Virus record (IMG/VR): IMGVR_UViG_3300006919_000109
Span: 1 to 43,422 of that record
Source of the DNA: a virus
DNA: 43,422 bases
Reading direction: 5' to 3' (one strand)
In this document: positions 6,021 through 33,189 of the stretch, one piece after another
Numbering within the stretch: position 1 is the first letter of the stretch
Layout: each line of letters starts with the position of its first letter
Notes under the pieces: model-generated
The model's database searches: none
Told to the model about the DNA's origin: nothing
Seen by the model: the letters and a program-made list of their open reading frames with translations, nothing else
Translations under genes and position numbers: made by a program

Positions 6021-6049
6021 ATAATAGAATAGAAAATAAAAAAAAGCAA
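6021..6049 (-). promoter_or_regulatory. Candidate early promoter of queC-gat-gp41 operon
   Basis: On the minus strand TTGCTT (6049-6044), a 17 nt spacer and TATTAT (6026-6021) precede the queC ATG by 7 nt. The -35 overlaps the stem of the uvsX terminator. The geometry matches stronger promoters elsewhere in the window. Confidence 0.45.
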
Positions 6050-6067
6050 CAAGTAAATGTTGCTTTT
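6038..6067 (-). terminator. Rho-independent terminator after uvsX
   Basis: A perfect 9 bp stem (6042-6050 with 6059-6067, arms AAAAGCAAC/GTTGCTTTT) encloses an 8 nt loop. On the minus strand it is followed by a run of eight U (complement of 6038-6045). It lies 22 nt past the uvsX stop and before queC. Confidence 0.88.
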
Positions 6068-6089
6068 ACGATATTATTTTTAAAAAGAC

Positions 6090-7220
6090 TTATTCGTCTT
6101 CATCTTCAGCGGGTTCTCCCATTAAGGATTCTACTTTATCTTCAGTATCATTACCGTATTTCCATTTTGCGGTAATAGACTCTTCAATCGCTGGAATAAT
6201 CTTTTCATCCCAAAACTCTTTATCATCTCTGAACGTTTTGAAATAGCCAAGCTTCGTACCATCTGCAAGCATATAAGTAGAACCAGTTTGAACCATTATA
6301 CCATTATCAACAGCAAGCTCTTTAATACCTGAATACTTGTTCAAACCTGACAAGAAGTTCAAATACATTTCCGCTTGAAGGAATTGTGGTACAAAACGAT
6401 TCTTAACAGTAAGAGCTCGTAGTGTAACCCCGCTATAGCTCTTAGCGTTACTTAACATCTGATCTTTATCATTTGTCTGATCTTGTTTTTCATATTTAGC
6501 TGCTAGCTGTACTAGTACGCTTGCAAGATAAACAGGACCTTTACCACCAGATTGCTGCTTAATTAACGACGGATACATCGCAGCAGGGTCTTCATACGTA
6601 TGATTACTAAAGAGAATAGTTGTACCAGTTTTAGCAGCCTTATACGTAAGAGTTCTCATCATAGATTTGAGCTGTTTAGCTCTCAAACCCATGTCATTAG
6701 CTGACTTATCTGCGGCAGCATCATTTAACTCTTTCTGTGCAGAAAGATTTCCAAGAGAATCAATACTAATGATAAACTTACCTTTTAGTTCAGGTTTATT
6801 CTCAATAGTTTCAAGCATCTTAAAGATCTGATTTCTACAATTCTCAACAGTATCTACAGGTACATACTTCGCTTTTTCAGGATCAAGACCAACGCTTTTT
6901 GCACTTTTACTATCAACCGCAACCTCTGTATCGAAAATGACCGGAATCATTCCTTTCTTTTGAGCATTCCCTAAAATCTTATTAATAATATAAGTCTTAC
7001 CAGTCATCGAAGGACCAGAAAAGCCTGTAATACGACCCTTAGGAACACCACCAAAGAGAGAACCGGATATAATAGCATTTAGTACCATACACCCGGTATC
7101 AATCCATTCTGTTACGGCTGATAAAGTTTGATCTGAAAGAAAGCCCGCTTCTGGGTTAATTTTTTCTAAGGCGAGAAATACATCATCAATCGCCTTGTCT
7201 ACTTTTTTATCAGCACTCAT
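6090..7220 (-). CDS. uvsX: UvsX RecA-like recombinase
   Basis: UvsX forms the presynaptic filament and catalyses strand exchange in phage recombination-dependent replication. Walker A is GFSGPSMTGKTY (about 65-76), Walker B the hydrophobic strand FIISIDSLGNL near 155, and loop L2 spans the NHTYEDPAAMYPSLIKQQSGG region. The 376 residues compare with 391 for T4, and the C-terminus is acidic (GEPAEDEDE), as in T4 UvsX. It has its own promoter (TTGATT-N16-TATCAT) ending 6 nt before the ATG, and a strong terminator behind it, so it is probably a single-gene transcript. Confidence 0.95.
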   Translation of the reverse strand: MSADKKVDKAIDDVFLALEKINPEAGFLSDQTLSAVTEWIDTGCMVLNAIISGSLFGGVPKGRITGFSGPSMTGKTYIINKILGNAQKKGMIPVIFDTEVAVDSKSAKSVGLDPEKAKYVPVDTVENCRNQIFKMLETIENKPELKGKFIISIDSLGNLSAQKELNDAAADKSANDMGLRAKQLKSMMRTLTYKAAKTGTTILFSNHTYEDPAAMYPSLIKQQSGGKGPVYLASVLVQLAAKYEKQDQTNDKDQMLSNAKSYSGVTLRALTVKNRFVPQFLQAEMYLNFLSGLNKYSGIKELAVDNGIMVQTGSTYMLADGTKLGYFKTFRDDKEFWDEKIIPAIEESITAKWKYGNDTEDKVESLMGEPAEDEDE

Positions 7221-7226
7221 ATATCT

Positions 7227-7254
7227 ATGATAAATTACCTTCTAAATAAATCAA
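7227..7254 (-). promoter_or_regulatory. Early promoter of uvsX
   Basis: TTGATT (7254-7249), a 16 nt spacer and TATCAT (7232-7227) lie on the minus strand. The -10 ends 6 nt before the uvsX ATG, so +1 would fall on the start codon. Confidence 0.68.
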
Positions 7255-7256
7255 GG

Positions 7257-7658
7257 TTATTCATCAAAAAGTTTAACTACCTTTGCTTGACCTGCTGATT
7301 GAGCTGCTTCAGCTGGAGTAGCAATTGTAGGTTGATCTGGTGTGATAATTGCGCTCGGGTTAAACATCTTTTCGTATTGTTCAACGAGCTTATCGTCAAG
7401 ATTAACATCATCTCCAAAAGTAATATTACCCTTGTTGAATGACCATACAGTATCATCCTTATCCTTTTCTTTAAGAAATTCATTAAAGAAAAATGGAAGT
7501 ACTTGAACTTGAAGTTGACCTGTTTGCTGATTAGGTACAACGTTAATAATAGCCGGGTTCTTTACCTTGACTACTTCCTTATTTGATGAAACCTGTTCGC
7601 CGTAAATTGTACGACCAATTCCATCTACGAATACAATAATTTCTTTTTTATCTGCCAT
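7257..7658 (-). CDS. Conserved-type hypothetical protein between uvsX and gp43
   Basis: This 133-residue protein has no named function that I recognise. The first 65 residues are a run of short beta-like strands (VFVDGIGRTIYGEQV, KVKNPAIINVVP, GQLQVQVLPFFFNEFL), which look like a small beta-barrel, perhaps Sm- or SH3-like; that is inference. The C-terminal third is disordered and Ala/Pro/Gln-rich, ending in an acidic KVVKLFDE. Its place between the recombinase and DNA polymerase suggests a replication accessory role. It has its own TTGATT-N17-TATATT promoter, with the -10 ending 6 nt before the ATG. Confidence 0.8.
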   Translation of the reverse strand: MADKKEIIVFVDGIGRTIYGEQVSSNKEVVKVKNPAIINVVPNQQTGQLQVQVLPFFFNEFLKEKDKDDTVWSFNKGNITFGDDVNLDDKLVEQYEKMFNPSAIITPDQPTIATPAEAAQSAGQAKVVKLFDE

Positions 7659-7664
7659 AACATT

Positions 7665-7693
7665 AATATATAATAGGTTTACTTAAAAATCAA
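7665..7693 (-). promoter_or_regulatory. Early promoter of the 133-aa gene
   Basis: TTGATT (7693-7688), a 17 nt spacer and TATATT (7670-7665) lie on the minus strand, with the -10 ending 6 nt before the ATG at 7658. It sits in the short gap after the gp43 stop. Confidence 0.6.
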
Positions 7694-7694
7694 G

Positions 7695-10301: not shown

Positions 10302-10309
10302 TCAAGATG

Positions 10310-10337
10310 ATAATAGATGCTTTTGGAGTAATATCAA
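10310..10337 (-). promoter_or_regulatory. Early promoter of gp43
   Basis: TTGATA (10337-10332), a 16 nt spacer and TATTAT (10315-10310) lie on the minus strand, 8 nt before the gp43 ATG. The -35 overlaps the last codons of the upstream glycosyltransferase. Confidence 0.65.
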
Positions 10338-11590: not shown

Positions 11591-11604
11591 CTTATATAAT
11601 TATT

Positions 11605-13410: not shown

Positions 13411-14444
13411 TTACATTTTTTATACAATTGCAGAGTATAATCAATTATATCATCTTTATTATCAATTTCAAGCTTATTAATAAACTCTCTTATTGCTTCA
13501 GTTACATCAACACTCGAGAAATCAACATCTGAGACAATTTTTTGTACTCCAATATTATATTTGTAATCAACAGTTAAGTTTAAAGGTTTAAGCTTATTAA
13601 TTTCTTTTATCCATTCATCTATCTCTTCAGGGGTGTATTTCGTATCTACAGTTAATCGTACAAAGTTTCCCGGAGTATACTTTTCTAATAATTTTTTATT
13701 TTCTCTAATCTCCCCTAATTTAAGTTTTCTGTGCTTTGGAGATATTTCATTAGGTATAAAATCAATAGCACTTGTCTCTAGATCAAGTATACAGATTCCT
13801 CTCGGTTCAGTTGAATCTCCGAAATCCATATTATAGGGAGCACCGAGATATATGATATTACCATTTGAATATTCTCTAAATTGACGTGTATGAAAATGAC
13901 CTGTAATAATATGAGGAGATTTTTGAAATAATTCATCACTCGTAAAGCCATGATCACAGAGTTTAGTTTCATTTAATTTAAATGAAGCAATTTCGAAATG
14001 ACCAAAAACATAATCACTCTTTGGTATGTCTGATACTTCAGTACCCCAAGGACAAAAAGATAATGTTTTACCGAAAAAAACATCTGATGTTAGTTCGTCT
14101 ATAACAGTAATATTTTTATAACCCTTTAAGATTGAAAGAGAATGTACTGATGAATTGTTTTTAAAAAAGCAATCATGATTACCTGTTATCATCGTGATAT
14201 TAAAATCAGATAGTTCAGATAAAAATTTAGATGTTGCTTGTATTGTATTAACTGCAATTTCATCTCGGTAGTGTAAAAGATCGCCACAAAAAATAATATC
14301 TTTAATTTTTCTTTTTTTGAGCTCTTTTTTCATCCATTTACCAAACTCAAAAGCTATTTCATGCCATTGAGTTGAGTTTTGGTGAACACCGAGATGAAGG
14401 TCGCTAAAGCAACACACTTTTGAATTTTTAATAGTAATACTCAT
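13407..14444 (-). CDS. 47: Recombination endonuclease subunit gp47 (Mre11/SbcD-like)
   Basis: This is a metallophosphoesterase nuclease with the full motif series: CFSDLHLGVH (about 12-21), CGDLLHYRDE (about 50), TGNHDCFF (about 92) and GHFHTRQF (about 182). At 345 residues it matches T4 gp47 (339). It overlaps gp55 upstream and gp46 downstream by 4 nt each, so the order gp55-gp47-gp46 is translationally coupled, resembling the arrangement in T4 and its relatives. Confidence 0.96.
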   Translation of the reverse strand: MSITIKNSKVCCFSDLHLGVHQNSTQWHEIAFEFGKWMKKELKKRKIKDIIFCGDLLHYRDEIAVNTIQATSKFLSELSDFNITMITGNHDCFFKNNSSVHSLSILKGYKNITVIDELTSDVFFGKTLSFCPWGTEVSDIPKSDYVFGHFEIASFKLNETKLCDHGFTSDELFQKSPHIITGHFHTRQFREYSNGNIIYLGAPYNMDFGDSTEPRGICILDLETSAIDFIPNEISPKHRKLKLGEIRENKKLLEKYTPGNFVRLTVDTKYTPEEIDEWIKEINKLKPLNLTVDYKYNIGVQKIVSDVDFSSVDVTEAIREFINKLEIDNKDDIIDYTLQLYKKCK

Positions 14445-14947
14445 TCGTACTGGGAGTTATAATTATCCTCTTTTTCAGGATTAACATACACACCATCCCC
14501 ACCTGGTTCAGAATTAAGAACTTCTCTGTAATAGGTTTCTTGATATGCAGCAATTGTTTCTTTTTCTCTTTTCTCTTTTTTAATTCTAGTAATAAAAGCA
14601 TGAAATGCAATGGTTGTAAAATAAGAAAATGGGTTATAATTATTTCCCTTAGAGTCTTTGCTATCAATATTAAATTTTTTATTTTTTAAAGCGGTATACA
14701 TTTTAATAACTGCATCCCCTACCATATCCTCTCTGTAAGAATAATTTATAAAATTTGGAGCATAAGAAAGTCCTTTGGCAATTTTGTAGATACTCTCTGC
14801 AAGATAATCGTTAATATCATCAGATTTATAATATTCTTTTATCTCTTTATAAAAGAGTTTTGGATCTACATAAAACTGCTCTTTAGGATTTTTTTTCTTT
14901 TCATCCATTACATCCGTTTCCACTTTATTTGAAATTTTACTTTTCAT
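14441..14947 (-). CDS. 55: Late-transcription sigma factor gp55
   Basis: gp55 is the T4 family sigma factor that directs host RNA polymerase to TATAAATA late promoters, working with the sliding clamp. The 168 residues compare with 185 in T4. The conserved core reads IAKGLSYAPNFINYSYRED, MVGDAVIKMYTAL and NPFSYFTTIAFHAFITRIKK (about 55-125), followed by the KREKET stretch. The C-terminus is acidic. At least nine TAAATA-type elements of the right form sit in front of late genes in this window, consistent with an active gp55 system. It overlaps uvsW by 11 nt. Confidence 0.92.
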   Translation of the reverse strand: MKSKISNKVETDVMDEKKKNPKEQFYVDPKLFYKEIKEYYKSDDINDYLAESIYKIAKGLSYAPNFINYSYREDMVGDAVIKMYTALKNKKFNIDSKDSKGNNYNPFSYFTTIAFHAFITRIKKEKREKETIAAYQETYYREVLNSEPGGDGVYVNPEKEDNYNSQYE

Positions 14948-16786: not shown

Positions 16787-16792
16787 ATTATA
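16787..16792 (-). promoter_or_regulatory. -10 element for the uvsY operon
   Basis: TATAAT (16792-16787, minus strand) ends 6 nt before the uvsY ATG. The best -35 at 16-nt spacing is GTGGAT, a poor match, so only the -10 is convincing. Confidence 0.45.
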
Positions 16793-18056: not shown

Positions 18057-18085
18057 TTGATTATTAAAAAACTTATGGTTACAAT
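18057..18085 (+). promoter_or_regulatory. Early promoter of the gene at 18092
   Basis: TTGATT (18057-18062), a 17 nt spacer and TACAAT (18080-18085) lie before the gene. The -10 ends 6 nt before the GTG at 18092, which supports that unusual start. Confidence 0.66.
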
Positions 18086-18091: not shown

Positions 18092-18631
18092 GTGAACGAG
18101 ATTAAGCACCCTACTATAAACATTCCGCTATATAATTATATTTCTGCCATATCTCTGAATGAAGTTATAGATGTTATAATCGGTAAAACACAAAAAGATA
18201 TCTTTAAATATTATAACTCTTATGAAATCGATTTAACGAAAAGTTATTGTAAAAGGTTTTTCTATCATAATTTTATAAAAGAAATATGTGATATATACAT
18301 TAAACGAAAAAACCTATTTAATTTAATATTTTACTACAAAAAAGAAGATAACTTTACAAGTAAAGAAACAGAAAAGATTATAAAACTTATAAATAAACAC
18401 CTCCCTATATGCATTTATACCGGTAAAGTAAAGTTCAAACAACTAAAAGAGTATAAACAATACGGGGAAGTAATAGAAGAATGTGAAAGGATAAAAGTAT
18501 TCACTGAAAAGAAATCTCAAAAAAACTATTCATTCAAGACTATAACTTCTATATCCAAGAAATATGAGTTAAATTTTCTATCAGAGAGGTATTTTACGGA
18601 TTTAAATATAAAATTTAATCTAATCCGATAA
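18092..18631 (+). CDS. Hypothetical protein, 179 aa, GTG start
   Basis: I do not recognise this protein. It is Lys/Ile/Tyr-rich and mostly helical (for example LTKSYCKRFFYHNFIKEICD), with a second part containing LPICIYTGKVKFKQLKEY. There is no membrane segment or catalytic motif I can name. The GTG start is supported because an early-type promoter places +1 on it. It is the only clearly early gene between late genes on both sides, so it may serve a different function from its neighbours. Its last codons overlap the late promoter of the next gene. Confidence 0.7.
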   Translation: MNEIKHPTINIPLYNYISAISLNEVIDVIIGKTQKDIFKYYNSYEIDLTKSYCKRFFYHNFIKEICDIYIKRKNLFNLIFYYKKEDNFTSKETEKIIKLINKHLPICIYTGKVKFKQLKEYKQYGEVIEECERIKVFTEKKSQKNYSFKTITSISKKYELNFLSERYFTDLNIKFNLIR

Positions 18632-18634
18632 ATA
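18627..18634 (+). promoter_or_regulatory. Late promoter, GATAAATA
   Basis: This gp55-type element overlaps the stop codon of the previous gene and ends 5 nt before the ATG at 18640. Confidence 0.72.
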
Positions 18635-18639: not shown

Positions 18640-19143
18640 ATGAGTAATTTCACTGATACTGTTTTAAAGTATATTGATTTGTATGAAAGTGGAAATGGAC
18701 TTTCATATGGAGGAAGTGGCGGAGCTTTTACCCAATCCTCAGGGCTAGATGGTGGTGGAAGTGGTACAGGTTCTTCACAAAGCCCGCTAAGATTTCCAGG
18801 AGCTTATGAAGTACCAAGTGCAGGACCGGTTCAAAAATATGCTGTACCGAGAAAGAATGATATTCCCGACTCTTTAAAAGAGTTAGCTGTAGCAGATAAT
18901 CAAGGGGTTATAAGAACCGTTATAAATAAACTTGCAAATAAAGAGCCATTAACTGCTCCAGAACAAGAGATTGTAAATCAAATAAAACAAATGGATAAGC
19001 ATAAGGATGTATCTGCGCTTAAACAATCTCTTGACAACGATGAAGAAGAAAACGAAATGAAATCTACAAGGACTGTTATGAACGATGAAGTTGAAATGAT
19101 GAATAATCCTAATCGTCCAAGATTATCATTTTCTCAAACATAA
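18640..19143 (+). CDS. Late protein with capsid-targeting-like N-terminus, 167 aa
   Basis: Function unknown. The protein starts MSNFTDTVLKYIDLYESGNG: an amphipathic helix followed by LYE-S at residues 14-17, which fits the (L/I)xE-(A/G/S) cleavage pattern of gp21-type prohead proteases. Residues 18-55 are Gly/Ser-rich and flexible. The rest is hydrophilic and helical, with an acidic stretch (DNDEEENEMK) near the end. The late promoter in front, the start motif and the neighbours with the same features suggest a head-packaged internal protein; this is inference. Confidence 0.75.
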   Translation: MSNFTDTVLKYIDLYESGNGLSYGGSGGAFTQSSGLDGGGSGTGSSQSPLRFPGAYEVPSAGPVQKYAVPRKNDIPDSLKELAVADNQGVIRTVINKLANKEPLTAPEQEIVNQIKQMDKHKDVSALKQSLDNDEEENEMKSTRTVMNDEVEMMNNPNRPRLSFSQT

Positions 19144-19146
19144 ATA
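19139..19146 (+). promoter_or_regulatory. Late promoter, CATAAATA
   Basis: This gp55-type element spans the stop codon of the previous gene and ends 5 nt before the ATG at 19152. Confidence 0.72.
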
Positions 19147-19850: not shown

Positions 19851-20482
19851 TGTTAAAAATTTTTGACCAGTTAGTAGAGGCTGTAGTAAATCATAACGAT
19901 TTAATTAGTCAGCCTAAAAAAGATTCTGCTTATTTTATATTTGGAAGAATGCACCCACCTACTGCTGGTCATCAACATCTTATTAACTTAGGAAAAGAGC
20001 TTGCTGAAAAAAACGATGGGGATTTTTATGTTTTTTTATCTCCAAGCTCAAAGGATAAAAAAAGTCCGTTAGAATATCAAAGCAGACTTGATGTTTTTAG
20101 AAATAATCCAAACTTTAAAGATATTAACATTGTAGATAATGATAAGGTTAAGACTCCTCAACATGCTGCAGGCTATCTTAAAAACATTTTAGGATATCCC
20201 GTACTACATATTATCGCTGGTAGTGATAGGGCAGATTACTATAGAGATACGTTTAGCAGACCGATGAGAGACGGATCCAAAGTAAATGTAGAAGTCCTAG
20301 GCGGTGAGAGAAGTTTAACTGGTAAGCAAGATCCTAATGACCCTTCTACTATAAAAGGTTCAAAAATGAGAGCTGCTGCTATTAAGGGAGACTTTGAAGA
20401 ATTTAAAAAAGGGGTACCAACCGGTACCCCTGACGAAACAATAAAAAGTGTTTATGATAAAATAAGAGAGAAATTAGTTTAA
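19850..20482 (+). CDS. Nucleotidyltransferase of the HxGH (NMN adenylyl/cytidylyltransferase) superfamily
   Basis: The 210-residue protein carries GRMHPPTAGHQHLI at about 31-44, the nucleotide-binding (T/H)xGH loop of the superfamily. Later come SPSSKDKKSPL and KGSKMRAAAIKGDFEEF (about 167-183), which takes the place of the ISSTxxR motif. Relatives join a nucleoside triphosphate to NMN, phosphopantetheine or a phospho-sugar/alcohol. NMN adenylyltransferase is one option, but the substrate cannot be read. The first residues MLKIFDQLVEAVV form a short helix with LVE-A (8-11), a perfect gp21-type cleavage site, so it may be an enzyme packaged in the head and injected. It ends tail-to-tail with the tubulin-like gene, sharing TTAA. 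Confidence 0.82.
   Translation: MLKIFDQLVEAVVNHNDLISQPKKDSAYFIFGRMHPPTAGHQHLINLGKELAEKNDGDFYVFLSPSSKDKKSPLEYQSRLDVFRNNPNFKDINIVDNDKVKTPQHAAGYLKNILGYPVLHIIAGSDRADYYRDTFSRPMRDGSKVNVEVLGGERSLTGKQDPNDPSTIKGSKMRAAAIKGDFEEFKKGVPTGTPDETIKSVYDKIREKLV
20405..20431 (-). terminator. Rho-independent terminator of the tubulin-like gene, inside an opposing ORF
   Basis: GGGGTACC (20411-20418) and GGTACCCC (20423-20430) form a perfect stem with a 4 nt loop, plus an A-T closing pair. On the minus strand it is followed by six U (complement of 20405-20410). It lies about 50 nt beyond the tubulin-like stop, within the coding sequence of the nucleotidyltransferase. Confidence 0.85.
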
Positions 20483-21645
20483 ATATCTCTTTCAATATCA
20501 CCAACACGTGCTAGTTCATCTAGCTTATCTTCTGGTTTTCCAAGACCACCAATAGCTGTAAAGATACTTAATCCAGATTTATTACCCTTATAAATACCTT
20601 GATGTACGGTAGAATTTGTCTTAAGAGTTCTCGTTAGCTGTTCAAACGCTTGATCTAAATATTCTTGAGGAATATTATCAAGAGAATCTTCATCACCAAT
20701 AACAACTGCAGCAGCGACATTACCTGTGCTCAACTTGATACCACCAGAAAGAATATTTTTCTGTAAATTATCTCGCATTGCTTTTGAAATATCTGTACCG
20801 TCAGCCCACTTAGTAACTTGAGTTGCTCCGAATACCATTACACCACTATCTAAAACAGTCTTATAATCTTTATTATCAAATGTAGAGTAACTACTATTTT
20901 TAGTAATAATATTATTAAAAAGGTTGAATAGGGTACAAATACTACCATTAGAAGTAGACCAGAATTGATTAATACTTAAACGAGGATAAAGTTTATTAAT
21001 CTTTTCATTATCAATAATAACTAATGGAGAAACAACACCTTGATCAACGTACTTTAATACTTCTTTAAGTGTTTTGTAAGCATTTGCAGCACATTTTTTA
21101 CCTTCGGTAATCTTAGGTAATGCTAAAAATACCCCTACCTTGTCAGATGAAGCTTTAGTAGAAGCTTGATACTCTCTAGCAATTTCAATTAATTCTGCAG
21201 TAGTACCAGAACCAGTACCACCACCTGCACCTGCACAAACAATTACTCTATCAAAGTCTCCTGCAAAAGATCTTCTAAACAAATCAAGAATATCTTCACG
21301 CTGCTCTTTGATAACCGCTCTTGCAACTTCTCTATCTTTACCAGCTCCAGATTCGTTGCCGATCTTAAGCTTATTCGAAATACTACAGGTTGCAAGATCT
21401 TGAGCAGCAGTATTAACTGCGCAAACTCTCTTATATCCAAGTTTGTTAAATGTTTCAGCGATTCTCGAACCACCTTGACCAGAGCCAACAAAAGCAAACT
21501 TGAAACCTACTGGAATTGAATCCTCAATATTAACATCAACTTCTTCTTCAGAAGGCATTGGAATATCAGGCAACTCCATGTCAAAAGTATCATCGCTTTG
21601 GTTTACGATAATATCATCATTTTCATTTTTTTGTTCTTCACTCAT
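20479..21645 (-). CDS. Tubulin/FtsZ-like GTPase
   Basis: The protein has 388 residues. An acidic disordered N-terminus (about 1-45) precedes a tubulin/FtsZ GTPase fold. The first nucleotide loop is FVGSGQGGSRIAE (about 52-64), then AVNTAAQDL (about 76). The G-box is GAGGGTGSGTTAEL (about 138-151), matching the tubulin signature GGGTGSG. A T7-loop-like TFDNKDYKTVLDSG (about 257-270) keeps the two Asp that activate GTP hydrolysis in FtsZ (NxDxxD), with Thr in the Asn place. Such proteins polymerise; phage PhuZ and TubZ position DNA. A late-type element (CTTAAATA) ends 5 nt before its ATG. The partner and role in a T4-like phage are unknown. Confidence 0.88.
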   Translation of the reverse strand: MSEEQKNENDDIIVNQSDDTFDMELPDIPMPSEEEVDVNIEDSIPVGFKFAFVGSGQGGSRIAETFNKLGYKRVCAVNTAAQDLATCSISNKLKIGNESGAGKDREVARAVIKEQREDILDLFRRSFAGDFDRVIVCAGAGGGTGSGTTAELIEIAREYQASTKASSDKVGVFLALPKITEGKKCAANAYKTLKEVLKYVDQGVVSPLVIIDNEKINKLYPRLSINQFWSTSNGSICTLFNLFNNIITKNSSYSTFDNKDYKTVLDSGVMVFGATQVTKWADGTDISKAMRDNLQKNILSGGIKLSTGNVAAAVVIGDEDSLDNIPQEYLDQAFEQLTRTLKTNSTVHQGIYKGNKSGLSIFTAIGGLGKPEDKLDELARVGDIERDI

Positions 21646-21650: not shown

Positions 21651-21658
21651 TATTTAAG
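21651..21658 (-). promoter_or_regulatory. Late promoter of the tubulin-like gene, CTTAAATA
   Basis: The element (21658-21651, minus strand) ends 5 nt before the ATG at 21645. I see no -35, so it is assigned to the late class. Confidence 0.62.
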
Positions 21659-22272: not shown

Positions 22273-22929
22273 CTAACCGTAAATAGGTTTACGGATGAAT
22301 TCATAAAACTCATTTCTTGTTGCAGAATCATCCATAAAATCTCCAGACAACTTACTCGTCTTCATAACACAACCATCATGCTTAACACCTCTCAAGCAAG
22401 CACATGTATGAGTTGCTTCAATAACTACCGCTACTCCTTTATTCCTTTCACATACTTCATCAATCGCTGTATGAATTTGCATCGTCATCCCTTCTTGAAT
22501 CTGTGGGCGTCTTGCGAAGTATTCTACAATACGGTTTAGCTTGCTCAGACCAATTACCCTACCTTCGAGTGAAGGGATATATGCGACATGCGCTTTACCT
22601 GTAAACGCAAGATGATGATGACTACATAGGCTCTTAACAGGGATATTAGTCTGAGCAACTATACCATCGTAACCATCAGATGGAAACGAAGTAACTTTTG
22701 GTGGCGCATTATAGCAGCCAGAAATAAGATCATAAACAAATGACTTCGCTACCCGATATGGGGTGTTATCACTATTAGGATCTGACCGCCAATCAAAGCC
22801 GAGAGCGTCTAGAAATTTCTCATAGGCTTTTGACGCGTTATTAATAATATCTTCTTGTTGTTCCTCCGTTAGAGCTACTGAACTATTAGCAGTAGGTAAC
22901 AAAAATTCTTTCACTCGTTCATCATTCAT
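22273..22929 (-). CDS. folE: GTP cyclohydrolase I
   Basis: FolE converts GTP to dihydroneopterin triphosphate, the first step towards 7-deazaguanines (and folate). The zinc and active-site motif CSHHHLAFTGKAHVAYIP is near residues 99-116, followed by GLSKLNRIVEYFARRPQIQE and the second zinc Cys in THTCACLRGVKHDG, all canonical. I chose the ATG at 22929 (MNDERVKEF, 218 residues) over one 51 nt upstream, because a TTGATT-N16-TATAAT promoter ends 7 nt before it and the longer form would lie across that promoter. With queD, queE and queC in the window, its role is most likely preQ0 supply. Confidence 0.96.
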   Translation of the reverse strand: MNDERVKEFLLPTANSSVALTEEQQEDIINNASKAYEKFLDALGFDWRSDPNSDNTPYRVAKSFVYDLISGCYNAPPKVTSFPSDGYDGIVAQTNIPVKSLCSHHHLAFTGKAHVAYIPSLEGRVIGLSKLNRIVEYFARRPQIQEGMTMQIHTAIDEVCERNKGVAVVIEATHTCACLRGVKHDGCVMKTSKLSGDFMDDSATRNEFYEFIRKPIYG

Positions 22930-22936: not shown

Positions 22937-22964
22937 ATTATAAGTGTTGCTCTACGAAAATCAA
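22937..22964 (-). promoter_or_regulatory. Early promoter of folE
   Basis: TTGATT (22964-22959), a 16 nt spacer and TATAAT (22942-22937) lie on the minus strand, 7 nt before the ATG at 22929. It stands back to back with the late promoter at 22968. Confidence 0.82.
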
Positions 22965-23616: not shown

Positions 23617-24243
23617 ATGCCAATTATAGATAAACATAAACTAATTCATTTACATGTACCGAAAACAGGCGGTTCGTCGATTATTAATTTTTTTGATATA
23701 TGGGGCGACGACGGAGCATTACATACATTCAAATCAGTTTTTATAGACGGTATTACTTGTACTCCACAACATTTTACTGGTTTAATGTTACAAAATTTGT
23801 TTCCTAAAAAATTCGAAAATTATAGAAAATTTATTGTTGTAAGGGATCCTTATACGAGAATTATTTCGAGTTATATTGATAAAATTAAACACTACTGTCC
23901 ATACGGCTTTAAAATTACGGAACTTGATAAAGATCATTTTCACCAATGGGTAGAGAGTAGTACTAAGCTAAATAATTTTGATCATATTTTACCTCAAGTA
24001 AGATATATCGGTCCGTTTGTTGTAGACTATTTATTAAAGTTTGAAAATCTAGAACAAGAATTTTATCAAATGTTGAACTATTTTAATATTAAAACAGATA
24101 AAAAATTACCAAAAATTAATACTGCAGCCCAACCGGTTTCAACCCTTGAACTTTCTTATCAAATAAAAACCGAAACTCTTACTCTAATTAATAATTACTA
24201 CAGTAAAGATTTTGAATTTTTCGGATACGAAAAAAGATGTTGA
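23617..24243 (+). CDS. Sulfotransferase family 2-like protein, copy 2
   Basis: This is a 208-residue paralogue of the preceding gene with the same plan: LIHLHVPKTGGSSIIN (about 9-24) and FIVVRDPYTRIISSYIDKIK (about 73-92). Both copies then carry a CPYG/CPYS segment and a shared DHFxxWV motif. Identity between the two seems modest, so the duplication is not recent and substrates may differ. It has no promoter of its own, and its stop codon overlaps the -35 of the queD promoter. Confidence 0.82.
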   Translation: MPIIDKHKLIHLHVPKTGGSSIINFFDIWGDDGALHTFKSVFIDGITCTPQHFTGLMLQNLFPKKFENYRKFIVVRDPYTRIISSYIDKIKHYCPYGFKITELDKDHFHQWVESSTKLNNFDHILPQVRYIGPFVVDYLLKFENLEQEFYQMLNYFNIKTDKKLPKINTAAQPVSTLELSYQIKTETLTLINNYYSKDFEFFGYEKRC

Positions 24244-24267
24244 TTTTAGCGAAAAGTATTTTACAAT
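24240..24267 (+). promoter_or_regulatory. Early promoter of queD-queE
   Basis: TTGATT (24240-24245), a 16 nt spacer and TACAAT (24262-24267) end 6 nt before the queD ATG. The -35 overlaps the stop codon of the upstream sulfotransferase gene. Confidence 0.75.
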
Positions 24268-24273
24268 CGATAT

Positions 24274-24888
24274 ATGAATTATTCTACTAAAGTAATCGAA
24301 TTGGGTAGTGCTGCATTTAGACAGCCTAAGGCAAAGTCTCATTGCCGATTTATTCACGGTTATAGATTAACGGCTAAGGTTACATTCAGAGCGAGCGAGC
24401 TTGATGAAAATAACTGGGTAATGGATTTTGGTGGTTTAAAAGAACTAAAAGCATTTCTCCAGGAAAAGTTTGATCATAAACTCGTAATTGCTGATAATGA
24501 TCCTGAGCTTAAAACTTTTGAAGATCTACAAAAGAAAGGGGTAGCTGAGTTAACTGTTCTTGAAGGTGGTGTTGGTATTGAGAAGTTTGCTGAATATGTT
24601 TGTAAAGCAGCTAATAGTTTTGTCCAACATAAAACCGACAATCGAGTTGAATGTATCCAAGCTGAAGTATTTGAACATGCTGATAATTCAGCTATTTATT
24701 CTCGAGAAAGCGCTCAAACAATTTCTTTTCCAGACGAAGTTACAGAAAAAGCCTATACAAAAGCACCTGTTGAAAAAGAAAAAGTACAAAAAGTTGTTCC
24801 AAAAGAAACTAATGAACCTCCGAAGGCAGTACCCGTAGGTGGAAAAAATAAACCCTCAACATGGGATTTTGGAACTAGCTGGGCTTAG
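24274..24888 (+). CDS. queD: 6-carboxy-tetrahydropterin synthase QueD, variant metal site
   Basis: QueD makes 6-carboxytetrahydropterin from dihydroneopterin triphosphate. The T-fold core is clear: SHCRFIHGYRLTAKV (about 21-35), VMDFGGLKELK (about 50), FDHKLVIADNDPEL (about 66) and VEVFEHADNSAIY (about 130). The catalytic Cys, the Asp-His pair and the substrate-anchoring Glu are kept. Of the usual three zinc His (AAH...LHGH), the first is Phe and the third Tyr (IHGY), while an extra His precedes the Cys. A charged Lys/Pro tail of about 50 residues follows the domain. It is in an operon with queE, 9 nt downstream. Confidence 0.85.
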   Translation: MNYSTKVIELGSAAFRQPKAKSHCRFIHGYRLTAKVTFRASELDENNWVMDFGGLKELKAFLQEKFDHKLVIADNDPELKTFEDLQKKGVAELTVLEGGVGIEKFAEYVCKAANSFVQHKTDNRVECIQAEVFEHADNSAIYSRESAQTISFPDEVTEKAYTKAPVEKEKVQKVVPKETNEPPKAVPVGGKNKPSTWDFGTSWA

Positions 24889-24897
24889 AATATAATT

Positions 24898-27036: not shown

Positions 27037-27040
27037 AAAG

Positions 27041-27048: not shown

Positions 27049-27049
27049 T

Positions 27050-27072
27050 TAATAGGGTATTAAGCCCTATTA
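27050..27072 (+). other. Stem-loop at the 5' end of the late mRNA for the 71-aa gene
   Basis: TAATAGGG (27050-27057) pairs perfectly with CCCTATTA (27065-27072) around a 7 nt loop. It ends 4 nt before the ATG and has no U run, so it is not an ordinary terminator. Confidence 0.7.
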
Positions 27073-27076
27073 TGTT

Positions 27077-28811: not shown

Positions 28812-28816
28812 ATATA

Positions 28817-28844
28817 TATTTAAATTTTTCCGTTGATAAAGCAA
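28817..28844 (-). promoter_or_regulatory. Promoter of phoH
   Basis: TTGCTT (28844-28839), a 16 nt spacer and TAAATA (28822-28817) end 5 nt before the ATG. The -10 also reads TTTAAATA, so early and late recognition are both possible. Confidence 0.58.
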
Positions 28845-28860
28845 TTAATTATATTATAAT
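28833..28860 (+). promoter_or_regulatory. Early promoter of the 2OG-Fe(II) oxygenase gene
   Basis: TTGATA (28833-28838), a 16 nt spacer and TATAAT (28855-28860) precede the gene. The ATG is 19 nt further on, so this transcript has a leader. The site overlaps the phoH promoter on the other strand. Confidence 0.78.
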
Positions 28861-28867
28861 TATTTTT

Positions 28868-28872
28868 AGGAG
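28868..28872 (+). promoter_or_regulatory. Shine-Dalgarno AGGAG
   Basis: AGGAG lies 7 nt before the ATG at 28880. It is the clearest ribosome binding site in the window and belongs to one of the few genes whose promoter leaves room for a leader. Confidence 0.75.
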
Positions 28873-28879
28873 ATAAATT

Positions 28880-29584
28880 ATGTATTTACTTAAGGAAGAA
28901 GAAGAATTACCAATTATAACGAGCGAAAATTTTCTACCTAGACAACTGGTAGAAGATTGTTTTAATGATATGTACGACGCTAAACAATACTTTGGCGTCC
29001 CTAGCTGGAGGTTTGGCGACAGCTACGATGGAGACCAGGATATGGAAAGTAATGATGTTTCTAACCCAGACTCTAACAAACATCTTTGCTGGGGAAGCGA
29101 TTTATGGATTCCAGATGCTAATATTCCGGTTGGTCCCTTTCTCGGAAATCTTGAAAGATGGTTCCATCACCAGGGTATTACAAGATTTATGAGTGAATGT
29201 AGAAGTAGAGAATTACAGTTAGGCGGAAGAATGCCTTTAACTGGTAGAACTCATATTATTAGCTACGGTGATGGTGGTTATTATAACTGGCATGCAGATG
29301 ATTTTGTCGCCGGTTTAAGTATTCATGGTAAAGATATTGCTACGACACCTCTCTTTACAATATCGTACACTCTCGTTAGAGACGAATCTTTAATCGAAGG
29401 AGGGAGTCAATTGTTTATGCATGAAGGAAAAACGTTTGAATTTCCTCTTAAAAACAATTTCTTATGTATATTCCCTTCGAGAATGTTTCACGCTTGTTCA
29501 GAAGTTAAATGTGACCCTAATATGCCATGGGAAAATAATCGATTTAACTTACAGATATGGACAGCGCAAGACGATAGATTTTAA
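28880..29584 (+). CDS. 2-oxoglutarate/Fe(II)-dependent oxygenase
   Basis: This 234-residue dioxygenase has iron ligands NWHADDF (HxD, about 137-143) and the distal His in SRMFHACSEV (about 200), with the 2OG-binding Arg in NNRFNLQIW (about 222). A stretch of Asp/Asn/Ser-rich sequence is near residues 45-68. Such enzymes are frequent in marine T4-like phages, where substrates are mostly unknown; DNA bases, proteins and small molecules are all possible. It is transcribed from a strong early promoter with a Shine-Dalgarno site. Confidence 0.88.
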   Translation: MYLLKEEEELPIITSENFLPRQLVEDCFNDMYDAKQYFGVPSWRFGDSYDGDQDMESNDVSNPDSNKHLCWGSDLWIPDANIPVGPFLGNLERWFHHQGITRFMSECRSRELQLGGRMPLTGRTHIISYGDGGYYNWHADDFVAGLSIHGKDIATTPLFTISYTLVRDESLIEGGSQLFMHEGKTFEFPLKNNFLCIFPSRMFHACSEVKCDPNMPWENNRFNLQIWTAQDDRF

Positions 29585-29594
29585 TAATCTTCTT

Positions 29595-29602
29595 CTTAAA
29601 TA
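29595..29602 (+). promoter_or_regulatory. Late promoter, CTTAAATA
   Basis: The element ends 5 nt before the ATG at 29608. A weak TAGATT lies 16 nt upstream of the TAAATA, so an early reading cannot be excluded. Confidence 0.5.
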
Positions 29603-29607
29603 ACATC

Positions 29608-31080
29608 ATGAAAAATGTTAACATTGATGTTATTATTTTAAGTAATACGGTTTCTCTTAAGCATGCAAATGTTTTGAGAGAAACCGTTACTTCTGTTTCA
29701 AACAATCCTAAAAATTATAAATTTAATATTATTGTAGTTGAATCTAATAAAAATCTTATTAATGATACAGAATTAAAAAAAATTACTGATAATTTAAATG
29801 TTAAATTTATTACACCTAAACAGGATTTTCATTACAATTTATTTCTTAATATAGCTCTAAGAGAATGTAAAGGAGATTTTATTTTAGTTTCCAATAATGA
29901 TGTAATTTATTCTGAAAATTGGTTTCATGAAATGTATAAGCATTTCGAAAAAGATAAAGAACTAATGAGTGCTTGCCCTGTGGATAGGCAATGGCATAGA
30001 CATTCTCAACAAATTTTTCCTGGCGAAAAAGAAATTTACTACGGTTATAGAACTTCTTACGAATTGACAGGTTGGTGTTTTGTACTCAAAAAAGAAGTAA
30101 TAAATAAGATAGGCTATTTTGATGAAAAATTTAAATTTTACTATCAAGATAATGATGTAAGTTGTCTTTTAAATCTTTTTGATATTAAACATGCTCTTAT
30201 TACAACTTCTCACGCTCATCATTTATTAAGTCAATCTCATGATGTGGTAGAAGACCCTTCTTATAAAAATATGGGCGCTCAAAGAATACCTATGATGGAA
30301 AAATGGGGAGATATTTTTTACTTTGAGCACGGAGCAACTCAAAGAAAAATTACTCCAGAGAAAATAGAAGAAATAAAATATTATAAAACTTATAAACGTT
30401 TAAGTATATTAATTTGTTCTTTACCGGATAGAGTAAACTACATAAAAAGATTAAAAGAGTGTTTAAAAAATCAATTAACTCCTGAGGTAGAAGTGTTAGT
30501 AGATTTTGCTGATAGAGATGAGAAGACTGTTGGACAAAAGCGTAATGATTTGCTTAAACAATCTATAGGAGAGTATGTTTGCTTTATCGATGATGATGAC
30601 TTTGTATCTGATGATTATGTCAGAAAAATTATCAAAGCTACAGATAGTAAACCTGATATTGTAGGTTTTAATACTGTAATAACTTTTGATGGCGTCCATC
30701 CCAGAAAAGTTAATAATTCGTGCGCTAACGAGAATTGGAGTCATGAAATAGGGAAAGTGCCTTGGGACTTAACCCCGCACCCTATCATTTACTATAGGTC
30801 ACCTAATCATCTTACACCAGTGAAAAGAAAAATAGCTTTAGAAATAAATTTTCCATCTATTAATAATGAAGAAGACAAATATTATTCATACGGATTAATG
30901 TCTAAATGCAAGGAAGAGGTTTTTATAGATGACTATCTTTATTTTTATGACTGTAAATCAAAAGATGAAATCGGTGAATTAATTGATGACCCCTACGAAA
31001 AGTTGATAGAATTTTACGATAAGAGAGACACGTTAAAGTACGAAATAAATAAAGTGCTGAAAATGAATAATAAGAGTTGA
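29608..31080 (+). CDS. Two-domain GT2 glycosyltransferase
   Basis: The 490-residue protein has two GT-A domains. The first (about 1-245) has IDVIILSNTVS, the DxD-like ILVSNNDVIYSENW (about 92-105) and a TGWCFVLKKEVINKIGYFDE acceptor segment. The second (about 262-490) restarts with LSILICSLPDRVNYIKR and carries EYVCFIDDDDFVSDDYV (about 322-338), a DDD metal site. Tandem domains suggest a processive or bifunctional enzyme, for example adding two different sugars. The acceptor is unknown. It carries a late-type element. Its stop codon overlaps the -35 of the next promoter. Confidence 0.86.
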   Translation: MKNVNIDVIILSNTVSLKHANVLRETVTSVSNNPKNYKFNIIVVESNKNLINDTELKKITDNLNVKFITPKQDFHYNLFLNIALRECKGDFILVSNNDVIYSENWFHEMYKHFEKDKELMSACPVDRQWHRHSQQIFPGEKEIYYGYRTSYELTGWCFVLKKEVINKIGYFDEKFKFYYQDNDVSCLLNLFDIKHALITTSHAHHLLSQSHDVVEDPSYKNMGAQRIPMMEKWGDIFYFEHGATQRKITPEKIEEIKYYKTYKRLSILICSLPDRVNYIKRLKECLKNQLTPEVEVLVDFADRDEKTVGQKRNDLLKQSIGEYVCFIDDDDFVSDDYVRKIIKATDSKPDIVGFNTVITFDGVHPRKVNNSCANENWSHEIGKVPWDLTPHPIIYYRSPNHLTPVKRKIALEINFPSINNEEDKYYSYGLMSKCKEEVFIDDYLYFYDCKSKDEIGELIDDPYEKLIEFYDKRDTLKYEINKVLKMNNKS

Positions 31081-31104
31081 ACTTATTAGAGATGATATTA
31101 TTAT
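31077..31104 (+). promoter_or_regulatory. Early promoter of the DUF366-gp62-co-chaperonin operon
   Basis: TTGAAC (31077-31082), a 16 nt spacer and TATTAT (31099-31104) end 6 nt before the ATG at 31111. The form is the same as the folE and queD promoters. Confidence 0.72.
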
Positions 31105-31110
31105 TGATGT

Positions 31111-31695
31111 ATGATATTAGAAAGTAAAATCGATTGTTACGACGGTAATTTAATTCATAATAGATTTGCTTATAGGTACTTTAAAGAAAGAACTTTACCT
31201 ATCGGTAATATAGTCGCATTCAGAGCTCCTATGCTTGTTGAAGCGGAAGGTATGATTGACCTTGAAGATGTATTACAAGGAGATTTTATCTATAGTGATG
31301 ACGCAGTAAATTTTTGTTGGGAAATACCTAATCTTGATAGTTTTGGAGCTGTATGTTTTCAACGATTGCTTAACACTCAAATTGCTCATATCTTATCTGA
31401 GATTATTGAGAAAAAAATTGAAGTAGATGGTGATGATCTTATCGTACATGCAGAACATAAGCAGCACGGTATTATTCAAGAAAAGGGTAAGGTTAGTGTT
31501 AGTATTACCCATGTTAAGAATGGAGCAGCTTTAGGCCATACAGGTATCAATGTTATTGCTGGAAAGAAAGCACCTGCTTTCGCTTTTTCCTCGGAAATGA
31601 ACGATATTCAAACCGCTACATTTATGCAAAGAGTTATTGAGACTTTTTATCAAATGGCTAACGATATATTCATCGCTACGACGAAGATTATATGA
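31111..31695 (+). CDS. DUF366-like protein, possible 7-deazaguanine-pathway enzyme
   Basis: This 194-residue protein matches my memory of the mainly archaeal DUF366 family: IVAFRAPMLVEAEGMIDLED near 36-55, a WEIPNLDSFGAVCFQRLL segment near 97-114, and the block KVSVSITHVKNGAALGHTGI (about 133-152) with an ATTKI-type ending. The family function is not firmly known to me. Alternating strands and a long helix resemble the T-fold of QueD, FolE and QueF, which is suggestive only. It has a folE/queD-type early promoter and overlaps the gp62-like gene by 4 nt. A role in altering preQ0 or its carboxy precursor is a hypothesis. Confidence 0.65.
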   Translation: MILESKIDCYDGNLIHNRFAYRYFKERTLPIGNIVAFRAPMLVEAEGMIDLEDVLQGDFIYSDDAVNFCWEIPNLDSFGAVCFQRLLNTQIAHILSEIIEKKIEVDGDDLIVHAEHKQHGIIQEKGKVSVSITHVKNGAALGHTGINVIAGKKAPAFAFSSEMNDIQTATFMQRVIETFYQMANDIFIATTKII

Positions 31696-32045
31696 CAAAT
31701 ATTTTCTCCATTTTATCTAACATTATTACTCACAAAAAAGATGATGTTATATCTGTAGAAGAAGATAGGGAGTACCAATTTTATCTTATTAACAGATGGC
31801 TTAGTATGCATAGTCCAAAATTTGCTTCTATTGTAAATGATACAACAAATAGATATTGGTCTTGCTTAACTAAAGATGAAATGAATAAACTTCTTATAAG
31901 TAGTATTCCAAGATCAAGATTTAAAAGAATTGCCTACATAAAGAAAAATAAAAAAGAAAAGACAAAGAAAGAAGAAGATATTGAAATGCTTGCTAAGAAC
32001 CTTGAACTCTCAAAAAGAGAAGTAAGTATGTATAAAGAATTATGA
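31692..32045 (+). CDS. 62: Clamp-loader small subunit gp62-like
   Basis: This is probably the gp62 subunit that joins gp44 to load the gp45 sliding clamp. It has 117 residues (T4 gp62 has 187, but marine relatives are shorter). The diagnostic part is the N-terminal FYLINRWLSMHSPKFASIVND (seen across residues about 30-50), followed by NRYWSCLTKDEMNKLLISSI and a Lys-rich helix (IKKNKKEKTKKEED). gp44 and gp45 are not in this window. The ATG overlaps the DUF366-like stop (ATGA), and its own stop overlaps the co-chaperonin start, so the three are coupled. Confidence 0.75.
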   Translation: MTNIFSILSNIITHKKDDVISVEEDREYQFYLINRWLSMHSPKFASIVNDTTNRYWSCLTKDEMNKLLISSIPRSRFKRIAYIKKNKKEKTKKEEDIEMLAKNLELSKREVSMYKEL

Positions 32046-32446
32046 GTATACCGATCCCAACACATATGCAGAAAACAACTGCATTAGATTTTGATAAGCA
32101 TGCTAAAGATACTTTTACTCTTACTGATTATGTTTTAGAAAAGGTTCTTGATAACATTATTTTAGTACAGTATGTTGATACACCTGATAGTGATAATACA
32201 ACAGTATTAAGAAAAGGTATCTTAGTACCGATTGATCATACAACCTCTGCATGGCGTATTGGAAAGATAATTCTCGCAGGTCCTGATTGTAAAAATGTTA
32301 AAGAAGGAGATTTTGTTTGCTTTCCTAACGATAAAGGAATTCCAGCCTCAAATGTAGATGTAAAAGGTATTGGTAAAGTTAAGTCTTCAATCTTTCTAGA
32401 TGAAACGAGAATTTTTGGTGTATGTTCTCCATCTGAGGAGGAATAA
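32042..32446 (+). CDS. GroES-like co-chaperonin (gp31-like)
   Basis: The 134-residue protein fits the GroES fold. After a 30-residue extension come LDNIILVQYVDTPDSDN (strand plus mobile-loop-like segment, about 36-52), GILVPIDHTTS (about 59), RIGKIILAGPDCKNVKEGDF (about 73-92), VCFPNDKGIP and GIGKV. Phage co-chaperonins such as T4 gp31 replace GroES on host GroEL to fold the large capsid protein. The ordering G(x)VV.GPG...VK.GD is the clearest evidence. The long N-terminal extension is unlike GroES. It is coupled to gp62 by a 4 nt overlap. Confidence 0.7.
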   Translation: MSIPIPTHMQKTTALDFDKHAKDTFTLTDYVLEKVLDNIILVQYVDTPDSDNTTVLRKGILVPIDHTTSAWRIGKIILAGPDCKNVKEGDFVCFPNDKGIPASNVDVKGIGKVKSSIFLDETRIFGVCSPSEEE

Positions 32447-32449
32447 ATA
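32442..32449 (+). promoter_or_regulatory. Late promoter, AATAAATA
   Basis: The element covers the end of the co-chaperonin gene and ends 5 nt before the GTG at 32455. The neighbouring GAGGAGG could alternatively serve as a ribosome site for read-through message. Confidence 0.55.
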
Positions 32450-32454
32450 ATTAT

Positions 32455-32832
32455 GTGAGAGTATCCACAGAGCAGCTTAGATTACTTTTATTGCAAAATG
32501 TAGTAGAAGTGAAGTTTACACGAAGGAGACCTAAACCAGGTTCTCCTTCTTTTCGTAGAATGTTAGCAACTAACAACTACGGACTACTTAATAGCATACA
32601 AGGAAGAACAGCTCTTAATTATAGACCCCCCTCTCACAGTCTTGAATATGACCCTAAACTTAAAGGGCTAGTTGTTACATGGGATATATTCATGCAGGAC
32701 TATAGACAAATACCAACAGCAGCTGCAGATGTAATTGCTGTGATACCCGCTAATGAAGAATTTTGGGAGTACTTTAATACAAAACTCGCATTTATGTCTT
32801 CTAAAGAGAAATTTGATTTTATGAGAGTTTAG
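32455..32832 (+). CDS. Sm-like/WYL_2 (DUF2693-type) protein, GTG start
   Basis: This 125-residue protein resembles the small T4-like phage family WYL_2 (DUF2693): LLLQNVVEVKFTRRRP near 10-25, SFRRMLATNNYGLLNS near 31-46, then LVVTWDIFMQDYRQIPTAAADVIAVI. Members are thought to have a small beta-barrel and may bind nucleic acid, but function is not settled. The GTG start follows AT, giving ATGTGA, where the overlapping ATG is followed at once by a stop. The promoter spacing puts +1 on the GTG. Confidence 0.68.
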   Translation: MRVSTEQLRLLLLQNVVEVKFTRRRPKPGSPSFRRMLATNNYGLLNSIQGRTALNYRPPSHSLEYDPKLKGLVVTWDIFMQDYRQIPTAAADVIAVIPANEEFWEYFNTKLAFMSSKEKFDFMRV

Positions 32833-32840
32833 GCTATATA
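32813..32840 (+). promoter_or_regulatory. Early promoter of the 111-aa gene
   Basis: TTGATT (32813-32818), a 16 nt spacer and TATATA (32835-32840) end 5 nt before the GTG at 32846. The -35 lies in the coding end of the preceding gene. Confidence 0.62.
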
Positions 32841-32845
32841 CTTAT

Positions 32846-33181
32846 GTGTTAACGAACGAAATATTCGAGAATGCGTTCGGAAAAAATTTTCAACGCCATT
32901 TAAAAATTATATTAAATGATAAAATTATAAGAGAGGGTAAATTATTATTATTTGCTCCTAAAGACTTCTATCTTCTGTTTACCTTAGAAATAAATGAAAA
33001 ACATAAAGTTATAGAAATACCTGTACCTTTTAGATTTAAAGTTAAAAAAGATGTAATTTATTTTAGCTATGTACTTGAAGACTTAACGGACGATATAGGT
33101 GTAAAAATAAAAACTCTAAATTATCATAAAGAATATAAGTCGAAATATTTTAACAACAGGCTTGACTTCCAGTTTAAATAA
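32846..33181 (+). CDS. Hypothetical protein, 111 aa, GTG start
   Basis: No family is recognised. The protein is basic and beta-rich in its middle (GKLLLFAPKDFYLLFTLEIN, VIEIPVPFRFKVKKDVIYFS) and ends in a charged, aromatic tail (YHKEYKSKYFNNRLDF). There is no membrane segment. The GTG start, again inside ATGTG, is supported by an early promoter whose -10 ends 5 nt before it. It lies in a run of genes that each have their own promoter. Confidence 0.65.
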   Translation: MLTNEIFENAFGKNFQRHLKIILNDKIIREGKLLLFAPKDFYLLFTLEINEKHKVIEIPVPFRFKVKKDVIYFSYVLEDLTDDIGVKIKTLNYHKEYKSKYFNNRLDFQFK

Positions 33182-33189
33182 GCTATAAT
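33162..33189 (+). promoter_or_regulatory. Early promoter of the DinG-like helicase
   Basis: TTGACT (33162-33167), a 16 nt spacer and TATAAT (33184-33189) end 6 nt before the GTG at 33196. It is the strongest consensus match in the window. Confidence 0.82.

What the first reader, a model, noticed from the sequence alone, without database searches (positions are those of the whole stretch)
6021..33189. Early promoters placed so that transcription starts on the start codon
At least nine genes (133-aa gene, uvsX, gp43, 18092, folE, queD, DUF366, 32846, DinG helicase) have TTGA-type -35, a 16-17 nt spacer and a TAxxxT-like -10 that ends only 5-8 nt before ATG or GTG. With the usual -12 to -7 position of the hexamer, +1 falls on or within about 2 nt of the first base of the gene. 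Most lack a Shine-Dalgarno site. The exception, the oxygenase at 28880, has its -10 19 nt upstream and does carry AGGAG. A genome that uses leaderless mRNAs this consistently for its early genes would be unusual for a T4-like phage.
Basis: partly seen in the sequence, partly recalled or inferred. Interest (0 to 1): 0.8.

Follow-up and report, generated by a model that had tools for sequence, protein, structure and literature searches.

The report
Phage family with leader-free messenger RNAs
In a widespread, uncultured family of T4-like phages, both the early and the late promoters sit so close to the genes that transcription should start on the first base of the start codon, so these phages appear to have largely given up the usual ribosome-binding leader that T4 and nearly all its known relatives use.

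Summary
In the window, 9 of 78 TTGAnn-N15-17-TAnnnT matches end 5-8 nt before a start codon (0.18 expected, p = 2e-13). T4 late boxes span -13 to -6, so +1 is again the first base of the gene.

The layout holds in five more long genomes (157-230 kb) and 72 further contigs of one uncultured family (about 50-82% gp20 identity). Shine-Dalgarno frequency there equals background (5%), against 54% in T4 and 50% in 76 other T4-like contigs. The late box shows no substitutions among relatives, the spacer drifts, and codon periodicity begins near the start codon. Leaderless starts are ATG or GTG only. Overlapping downstream genes mostly lack the boxes. T4, cyanophages and Cr30 lack the layout; Pelagibacter phage HTVC008M has a few such late genes.

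Best reading: a clade-wide shift from SD-led to leaderless initiation in early and late gene classes. Both ingredients are known; this combination in a T4-like lineage was not found in the papers searched. No 5' ends are mapped and the host is unknown.

The parts
7227..7254 (-). uvsX early promoter: -35 TTGATT 7249-7254, -10 TATCAT 7227-7232, 6 nt before ATG (7220)
   Evidence: in G3 and G5 the -10 is also 6 nt, in G1 and G4 7 nt, before their own shifted ATG
7665..7693 (-). 133-aa gene early promoter TTGATT-17-TATATT, 6 nt before ATG (7658)
10310..10337 (-). gp43 (DNA polymerase) early promoter TTGATA-16-TATTAT, 8 nt before ATG (10301)
   Evidence: Pfam DNA_pol_B; leaderless-type gp43 promoters also in G7 and G9
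6021..6026 (-). queC -10 TATTAT, 7 nt before ATG (6013); -35 weak
   Evidence: G3 and G5 orthologues TATAAT at 6 nt, G1 TATACT at 6 nt, unrelated spacer sequence
5290..5295 (-). class-II glutamine amidotransferase -10 TATAAT, 6 nt before ATG (5283); protein begins M-C-A-I-F-G, so this start codon is fixed by the catalytic Cys2 (family knowledge)
16787..16792 (-). uvsY -10 TATAAT, 6 nt before ATG (16780)
   Evidence: same spacing (6-7 nt) in relatives
18057..18085 (+). early promoter TTGATT-17-TACAAT, 6 nt before GTG 18092
22937..22964 (-). folE early promoter TTGATT-16-TATAAT, 7 nt before ATG (22929)
24240..24267 (+). queD (PTPS) early promoter TTGATT-16-TACAAT, 6 nt before ATG 24274
31077..31104 (+). 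DUF366 gene early promoter TTGAAC-16-TATTAT, 6 nt before ATG 31111
32813..32840 (+). early promoter TTGATT-16-TATATA, 5 nt before GTG 32846
33162..33189 (+). DinG-like helicase early promoter TTGACT-16-TATAAT, 6 nt before GTG 33196
   Evidence: relatives have TATACT 7 nt before GTG or close to it
35710..35738 (-). early promoter TTGACT-17-TAAGAT, 8 nt before ATG of 34814r (35701); overlaps the divergent gp15 late promoter
18627..18634 (+). late-type promoter GATAAATA, 5 nt before ATG 18640
   Evidence: same spacing in G1, G4, G5
19139..19146 (+). late-type promoter CATAAATA, 5 nt before ATG 19152
32442..32449 (+). late-type promoter AATAAATA, 5 nt before GTG 32455
   Evidence: same spacing in L092, L094, L095 (L097 has a one-base variant)
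35714..35721 (+). late promoter TATAAATA, 5 nt before GTG of gp15-like tail sheath stabilizer 35727
   Evidence: conserved in relatives
40246..40253 (+). late promoter TATAAATA, 5 nt before ATG of gp20 portal 40259
   Evidence: ATAAATA invariant at 5 nt in 12 phages; gp20 identity
22968..22975 (+). late promoter TATAAATA, 6 nt before ATG 22982
29595..29602 (+). late-type variant CTTAAATA, 5 nt before ATG 29608
21651..21658 (-). late-type variant CTTAAATA, 5 nt before ATG of tubulin-like gene 20479-21645; exact ATAAATA at 5 nt in the G1 orthologue
14441..14947 (-). gp55-like late sigma factor, the expected reader of the late boxes
   Evidence: phrog_234 E 2.6e-26; orthologues in all five long relatives
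28833..28879 (+). the one leadered exception: TTGATA-16-TATAAT, 19 nt before ATG 28880, with AGGAG
   Evidence: orthologues in relatives have a -10 at about 7 nt and no SD

Best explanation
This is a phage lineage whose transcription units mostly start on the start codon. Early genes use host sigma70-type promoters (TTGAnn, 16-17 nt, TATAAT-like) with the -10 ending 6 nt before ATG/GTG. Late genes use gp55-type boxes (nATAAATA) ending 5 nt before ATG/GTG. In both cases +1 is the first base of the start codon, or within a few nt of it, so the mRNAs are leaderless and should be translated from the 5'-terminal AUG/GUG without SD pairing. Further genes in a unit overlap their predecessor (ATGA-type junctions) and are probably reached by translational coupling, which would explain why no SD is needed anywhere. 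Shown: motif positions, their statistics, conservation, absence of SD, presence of gp55. Inferred: the exact RNA 5' ends, the leaderless translation itself, and the coupling.
For: Position statistics: p from 4e-11 to 1e-28 in each of five long family genomes; none in T4, HTVC008M or Cr30, 3 in Melnitz; ATAAATA at 5 nt: 31 in G1, shuffled mean 0.15; T4 13-35 nt and P-SSM2 mostly 12-34 nt upstream; de novo motif: ATAAATAA in the family, AGGAG in T4 and other SD-led relatives. Breadth: 72 contigs, 869 genes; SD 5.4% against 5.1% control; box at 5 nt 124 times; TATAAT-like at 6 nt 68 times; four more long genomes; 76 other T4-like contigs: SD 50%, 174 leadered late boxes, 7 at 5 nt. -35 at spacer 16/17. 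Footprint: no substitutions at -12..-6 in 35 late alignments, free spacer, fixed start codon, third-position periodicity. The -10 stays 6-7 nt from each phage's own shifted start codon. ATG/GTG only and pyrimidine at -1. Boxes in 55-64% of divergent or short-gap genes, 10% of overlapping genes. Start codon fixed by catalytic Cys2 in the amidotransferase. T at -13 in T4 late promoters: PMC2988020. Late sigma gp55.
Against: No RNA 5' ends have been mapped. A -10 fixes +1 only to within about 2 nt, and in G9 late boxes spread over 5-12 nt, so some leaders of 1-7 nt are likely. About 36-45% of divergent or short-gap genes lack a strict match to either box. The AGGAG oxygenase shows that a leader with SD is not excluded in the window. 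Gene starts outside the window come from my own simple caller.
Confidence: 0.88

Rival explanations
1. The boxes are promoters, but transcripts carry very short leaders (1-7 nt) rather than none; initiation is then by 5'-proximal start-codon recognition rather than strict 5'-terminal AUG binding.
For: Spread of the late box from 5 to 12 nt in G9; early boxes at 7-8 nt in gp43, folE and 34814r.
Against: Sharp modes at exactly 5 (late) and 6 (early) nt across most of six genomes and 72 contigs; pyrimidine at -1 and purine at +1 fits a start site on the start codon.
Confidence: 0.2
2. The A/T-rich boxes are translation-initiation signals (unstructured or S1-binding sites), not promoters; the mRNAs are long and start elsewhere.
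For: A/T-rich sequence before start codons is common in SD-poor bacteria (general knowledge, not tested here).
Against: Boxes are rare in overlapping genes that would need translation signals most (10% against 55-64%); a matching -35 lies at 16/17 nt; the late box is the T4 late promoter sequence in an exact register; divergent genes need a promoter each.
Confidence: 0.05
3. The start codons are misassigned; true starts lie downstream, so ordinary leaders with SD exist inside the apparent genes.
For: Starts were called from sequence only.
Against: Codon-position periodicity of substitutions begins near the start codon, which itself is fixed; the amidotransferase start is fixed by Cys2; the same caller finds SD in 54% of T4 genes.
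Confidence: 0.03

Closest known systems
Leaderless (TA-led) genes of bacteria (Zheng et al. 2011, PMC3160421; Deinococcus-Thermus, PMC12340547; mycobacteria, PMC4633059)
   Same: -10 box about 10-12 nt before the start codon, no SD, ATG or GTG at the 5' end
   Different: Those are cellular genes read by the host sigma. Here it is a T4-like phage family, and a second promoter class of the kind read by a phage sigma (gp55) is placed the same way
T4 late promoters (gp55/gp33/gp45; Geiduschek and Kassavetis 2010, PMC2988020)
   Same: Box TATAAATA and a gp55 homologue
   Different: In T4 the box lies 13-35 nt upstream, leaving room for a leader with SD; here it ends 5 nt from the start codon
Pelagibacter phage HTVC008M and Methylophilales phage Melnitz (Kyanoviridae)
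   Same: A few late genes (6 and 2) have ATAAATA exactly 5 nt from ATG
   Different: 44-48% of their genes have SD; no early-class leaderless peak of comparable strength
Single leaderless phage genes such as those of lambda and P2 (cited in PMC3160421 and PMC4633059)
   Same: mRNA begins at the start codon
   Different: Isolated genes, not a genome-wide rule

Membership tests
T4-like phage | T4 core genes (gp43, gp20, uvsX, uvsY, uvsW, gp46/47, gp55) | tested here: met
T4-like phage | Falls inside a described T4-like family (Straboviridae or Kyanoviridae) | tested here: not met
   gp20 at most about 33% identical to any listed GenBank phage; separate clade in a gp20 tree, support 94/96
T4 late promoter | 8-bp TATA box nATAAATA with a gp55-type sigma | tested here: met
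T4 late promoter | gp33 co-activator and gp45 clamp | tested here: inconclusive
   not among hits of a phmmer search with P-RSM4 proteins in G1; only one query of each was used and gp33 is short and diverged
Leaderless (TA-led) gene | -10-like signal at a fixed ~10-12 nt before the start codon, above shuffled controls | tested here: met
Leaderless (TA-led) gene | No SD | tested here: met
Leaderless (TA-led) gene | RNA 5' end at the start codon | not testable with these tools
   no transcript data held
Far-T4 phages (RM378 group) | Closest to RM378 | tested here: not met
   gp20 25% to RM378 against 31-32% to cyanophages, Melnitz and HTVC008M; the uncultured Far-T4 contigs themselves were not compared
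Phage with Bacteroidota-type promoters | -7 element TAnnTTTG near starts | tested here: not met

The most novel reading that the evidence does not exclude
An entire lineage of T4-like phages changed its translation-initiation system from SD-led to leaderless across both sigma classes, and uses this as a takeover device: phage factors (for example the bS21 homologues seen in three genomes) shift host ribosomes towards 5'-terminal AUG/GUG mRNAs so that phage messages win over host ones. The switch itself is well supported; the ribosome-remodelling part is not excluded but has no direct evidence.
Probability: 0.12. Interest if true: 0.93.

Novelty: new variant of a known kind. Interest (0 to 1): 0.78.

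Why it matters
T4 and its relatives are a reference model for SD-led phage gene expression. It predicts hosts that translate leaderless AUG and GUG mRNAs efficiently, tells annotators to use the -10 or late box as the start-codon marker in these genomes, and gives a directly testable set of very short promoters.

Tried and rejected
Host identification: profile scans of genome contigs with gp20 (none) and gp43 (only distant 27-35% relatives); no photosystem reaction-centre gene in 12 records, so a cyanobacterial host is not suggested; no Bacteroidota -7 element, although a T4-like virus with queuosine genes has been assigned to Bacteroidetes (PMC7198788); a search for IMG taxon 2788499918, source of contig L223, found nothing. 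Far-T4 membership not supported by gp20 identity. Papers: nothing on leaderless T4-like phages in the held library; a held library is not the whole literature. The palindrome CATAAATATATTTATG, two start codons plus two late boxes in divergent pairs of G1 and G6, also occurs widely in IMG/VR; long ORFs on both sides in 8 of 81 cases, about 2 expected, so left as a side note. T at -1 alone is not diagnostic, because overlapping genes often have it too.
Full report
WHAT WAS CLAIMED.

CHECK IN THE WINDOW. The window is a 43,422-nt IMG/VR virus record classed as linear with gp43, uvsX, uvsY, a uvsW-type helicase, gp46/47-type genes, gp20 portal, gp15 and a gp55-type late sigma. All nine promoters exist as described, with small corrections: folE starts at the ATG 22929, distance 7; 32846 is ambiguous. 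Dinucleotide shuffles agree.

A SECOND CLASS. Genes without a sigma70 promoter carry nATAAATA ending 5 nt before ATG/GTG: 18640, 19152, 32455, 35727 (gp15), 40259 (gp20), with variants at 29608 and 20479r, and one at 6 nt (22982). This is the T4 late box. The T4 review places its first T at -13 (PMC2988020), so an 8-bp box ends at -6 and +1 follows 5 nt later, on the start codon. The window encodes gp55 (phrog_234, E 2.6e-26).

RELATIVES. A gp43 scan found ten loci including a 230-kb contig, G1. Starts were called with a script that uses coding potential and codon type only. In G1, 31 genes have ATAAATA at exactly 5 nt (shuffled mean 0.15). In 72 contigs and 869 genes the box ([AC]TAAATA) lies at 5 nt 124 times and at 6 nt 57 times, TATAAT-like hexamers peak at 6 nt (68; at most 30 at any other distance), and SD is 5.4% against 5.1% in a shifted control. 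Four more long genomes (157-209 kb) give the same picture.

CONTROLS. With the same caller, T4 has 54% SD and its late boxes lie 13-35 nt upstream; P-SSM2 and P-RSM4 are similar in spacing. In 76 other T4-like contigs SD is 50%, leadered late boxes number 174, and boxes at 5 nt number 7. De novo motif search returns an AGGAG-like motif for T4, HTVC008M, Melnitz, C48C1 and Cr30, and ATAAATAA at a fixed position for the family. HTVC008M has six late genes at 5 nt and Melnitz two, in genomes that otherwise use SD. A gp20 tree puts the family on one side of one branch (94/96); L108 and T4 have long branches there.

WHY PROMOTERS AND WHY THESE STARTS. (i) A TTG lies 16 or 17 nt upstream of the -10 in about two thirds of early sites, and hardly ever at 13-15 or 18-20. 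(ii) Boxes are found in 55% of divergent and 64% of short-gap genes but 10% of overlapping genes. (iii) Among relatives the late box has no substitutions at -12..-6 in 35 alignments, the spacer changes, the start codon is fixed and third-position periodicity follows; queries were chosen for having the box, subjects were not. (iv) Where a start codon has moved by a few codons (uvsX, the 133-aa gene), the -10 has moved with it. (v) Start codons at such sites are 151 ATG, 31 GTG and no TTG, against 5 GTG in 333 overlapping genes (p = 1e-10); -1 is a pyrimidine in 93 of 102 late sites. ATG or GTG at the 5' end is what leaderless translation needs in mycobacteria (PMC4633059). (vi) The amidotransferase must begin Met-Cys, which fixes its start independently.

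THE EXCEPTION. The oxygenase at 28880 has a 19-nt gap and AGGAG; its orthologues in G1, G4, G5, L097 and L106 have a -10 at about 7 nt and no SD. So the leader seems secondary in the window, and a functional anti-SD in the host is possible. A chance AGGAG cannot be excluded.

MECHANISM. Early: host RNA polymerase with sigma70 starts on the start codon. Late: gp55 polymerase does the same. The first gene of each unit is translated from its 5'-terminal AUG/GUG; the following, overlapping genes are probably reached by coupling. The 5' ends, the translation mode and the coupling are inferred.

NOVELTY. Leaderless genes, sigma70 and gp55 promoters are all known. A T4-like lineage in which both temporal classes are leaderless was not found in the papers searched. 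Filed as a new variant of a known kind.

LIMITS. Host unknown; no transcript data; own gene caller; a good part of divergent and short-gap genes have neither strict box; some leaders of a few nt are likely, most clearly in G9. 'Early' and 'late' are assigned from promoter type and gene function, not from timing data.

Noticed in passing
window 20479-21645 (-): Tubulin/FtsZ-family GTPase (Pfam Tubulin E 5.9e-17, weak TubZ C-terminal match) in a T4-like phage; also in G1, G4, G5 and the record of L095, not found in the more distant family records searched.
   Followed up: partly
window 5291-6013, 22273-22929, 24274-24888, 31111-31695: QueC, GTP cyclohydrolase I, QueD and DUF366: a 7-deazaguanine (queuosine-type) gene set, each with a leaderless-type -10.
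   Followed up: no
window 35702-35726: 25-nt divergent spacer in which the gp15 late box (+) overlaps the -10 of an early promoter on the other strand; early and late promoters may exclude each other.
   Followed up: no
L026:9813-9828 and L299:8064-8079: Perfect palindrome CATAAATATATTTATG forms two start codons and two late boxes of divergent genes 10 bp apart, in two family genomes.
   Followed up: partly
L053-L060 (HTVC008M) and L121-L128 (Melnitz): A minority of late genes have the box 5 nt from ATG and no SD, next to ordinary leadered genes: possible intermediate state.
   Followed up: partly
L024, L026, L027 (G1): About two dozen tRNA genes and a tmRNA whose predicted tag ends in AVA.
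   Followed up: no
L320 (G9), L307 (G7), L326 (G8): Phage-encoded bS21 homologues, diverged from each other.
   Followed up: partly
window 42944-43396 (+): gp4-like head completion protein matching the TnsA-like N-terminal endonuclease fold in Pfam (E 1.2e-18); a G1 gene in the same neighbourhood (2928-3386) matches P-RSM4 gp4.
   Followed up: no
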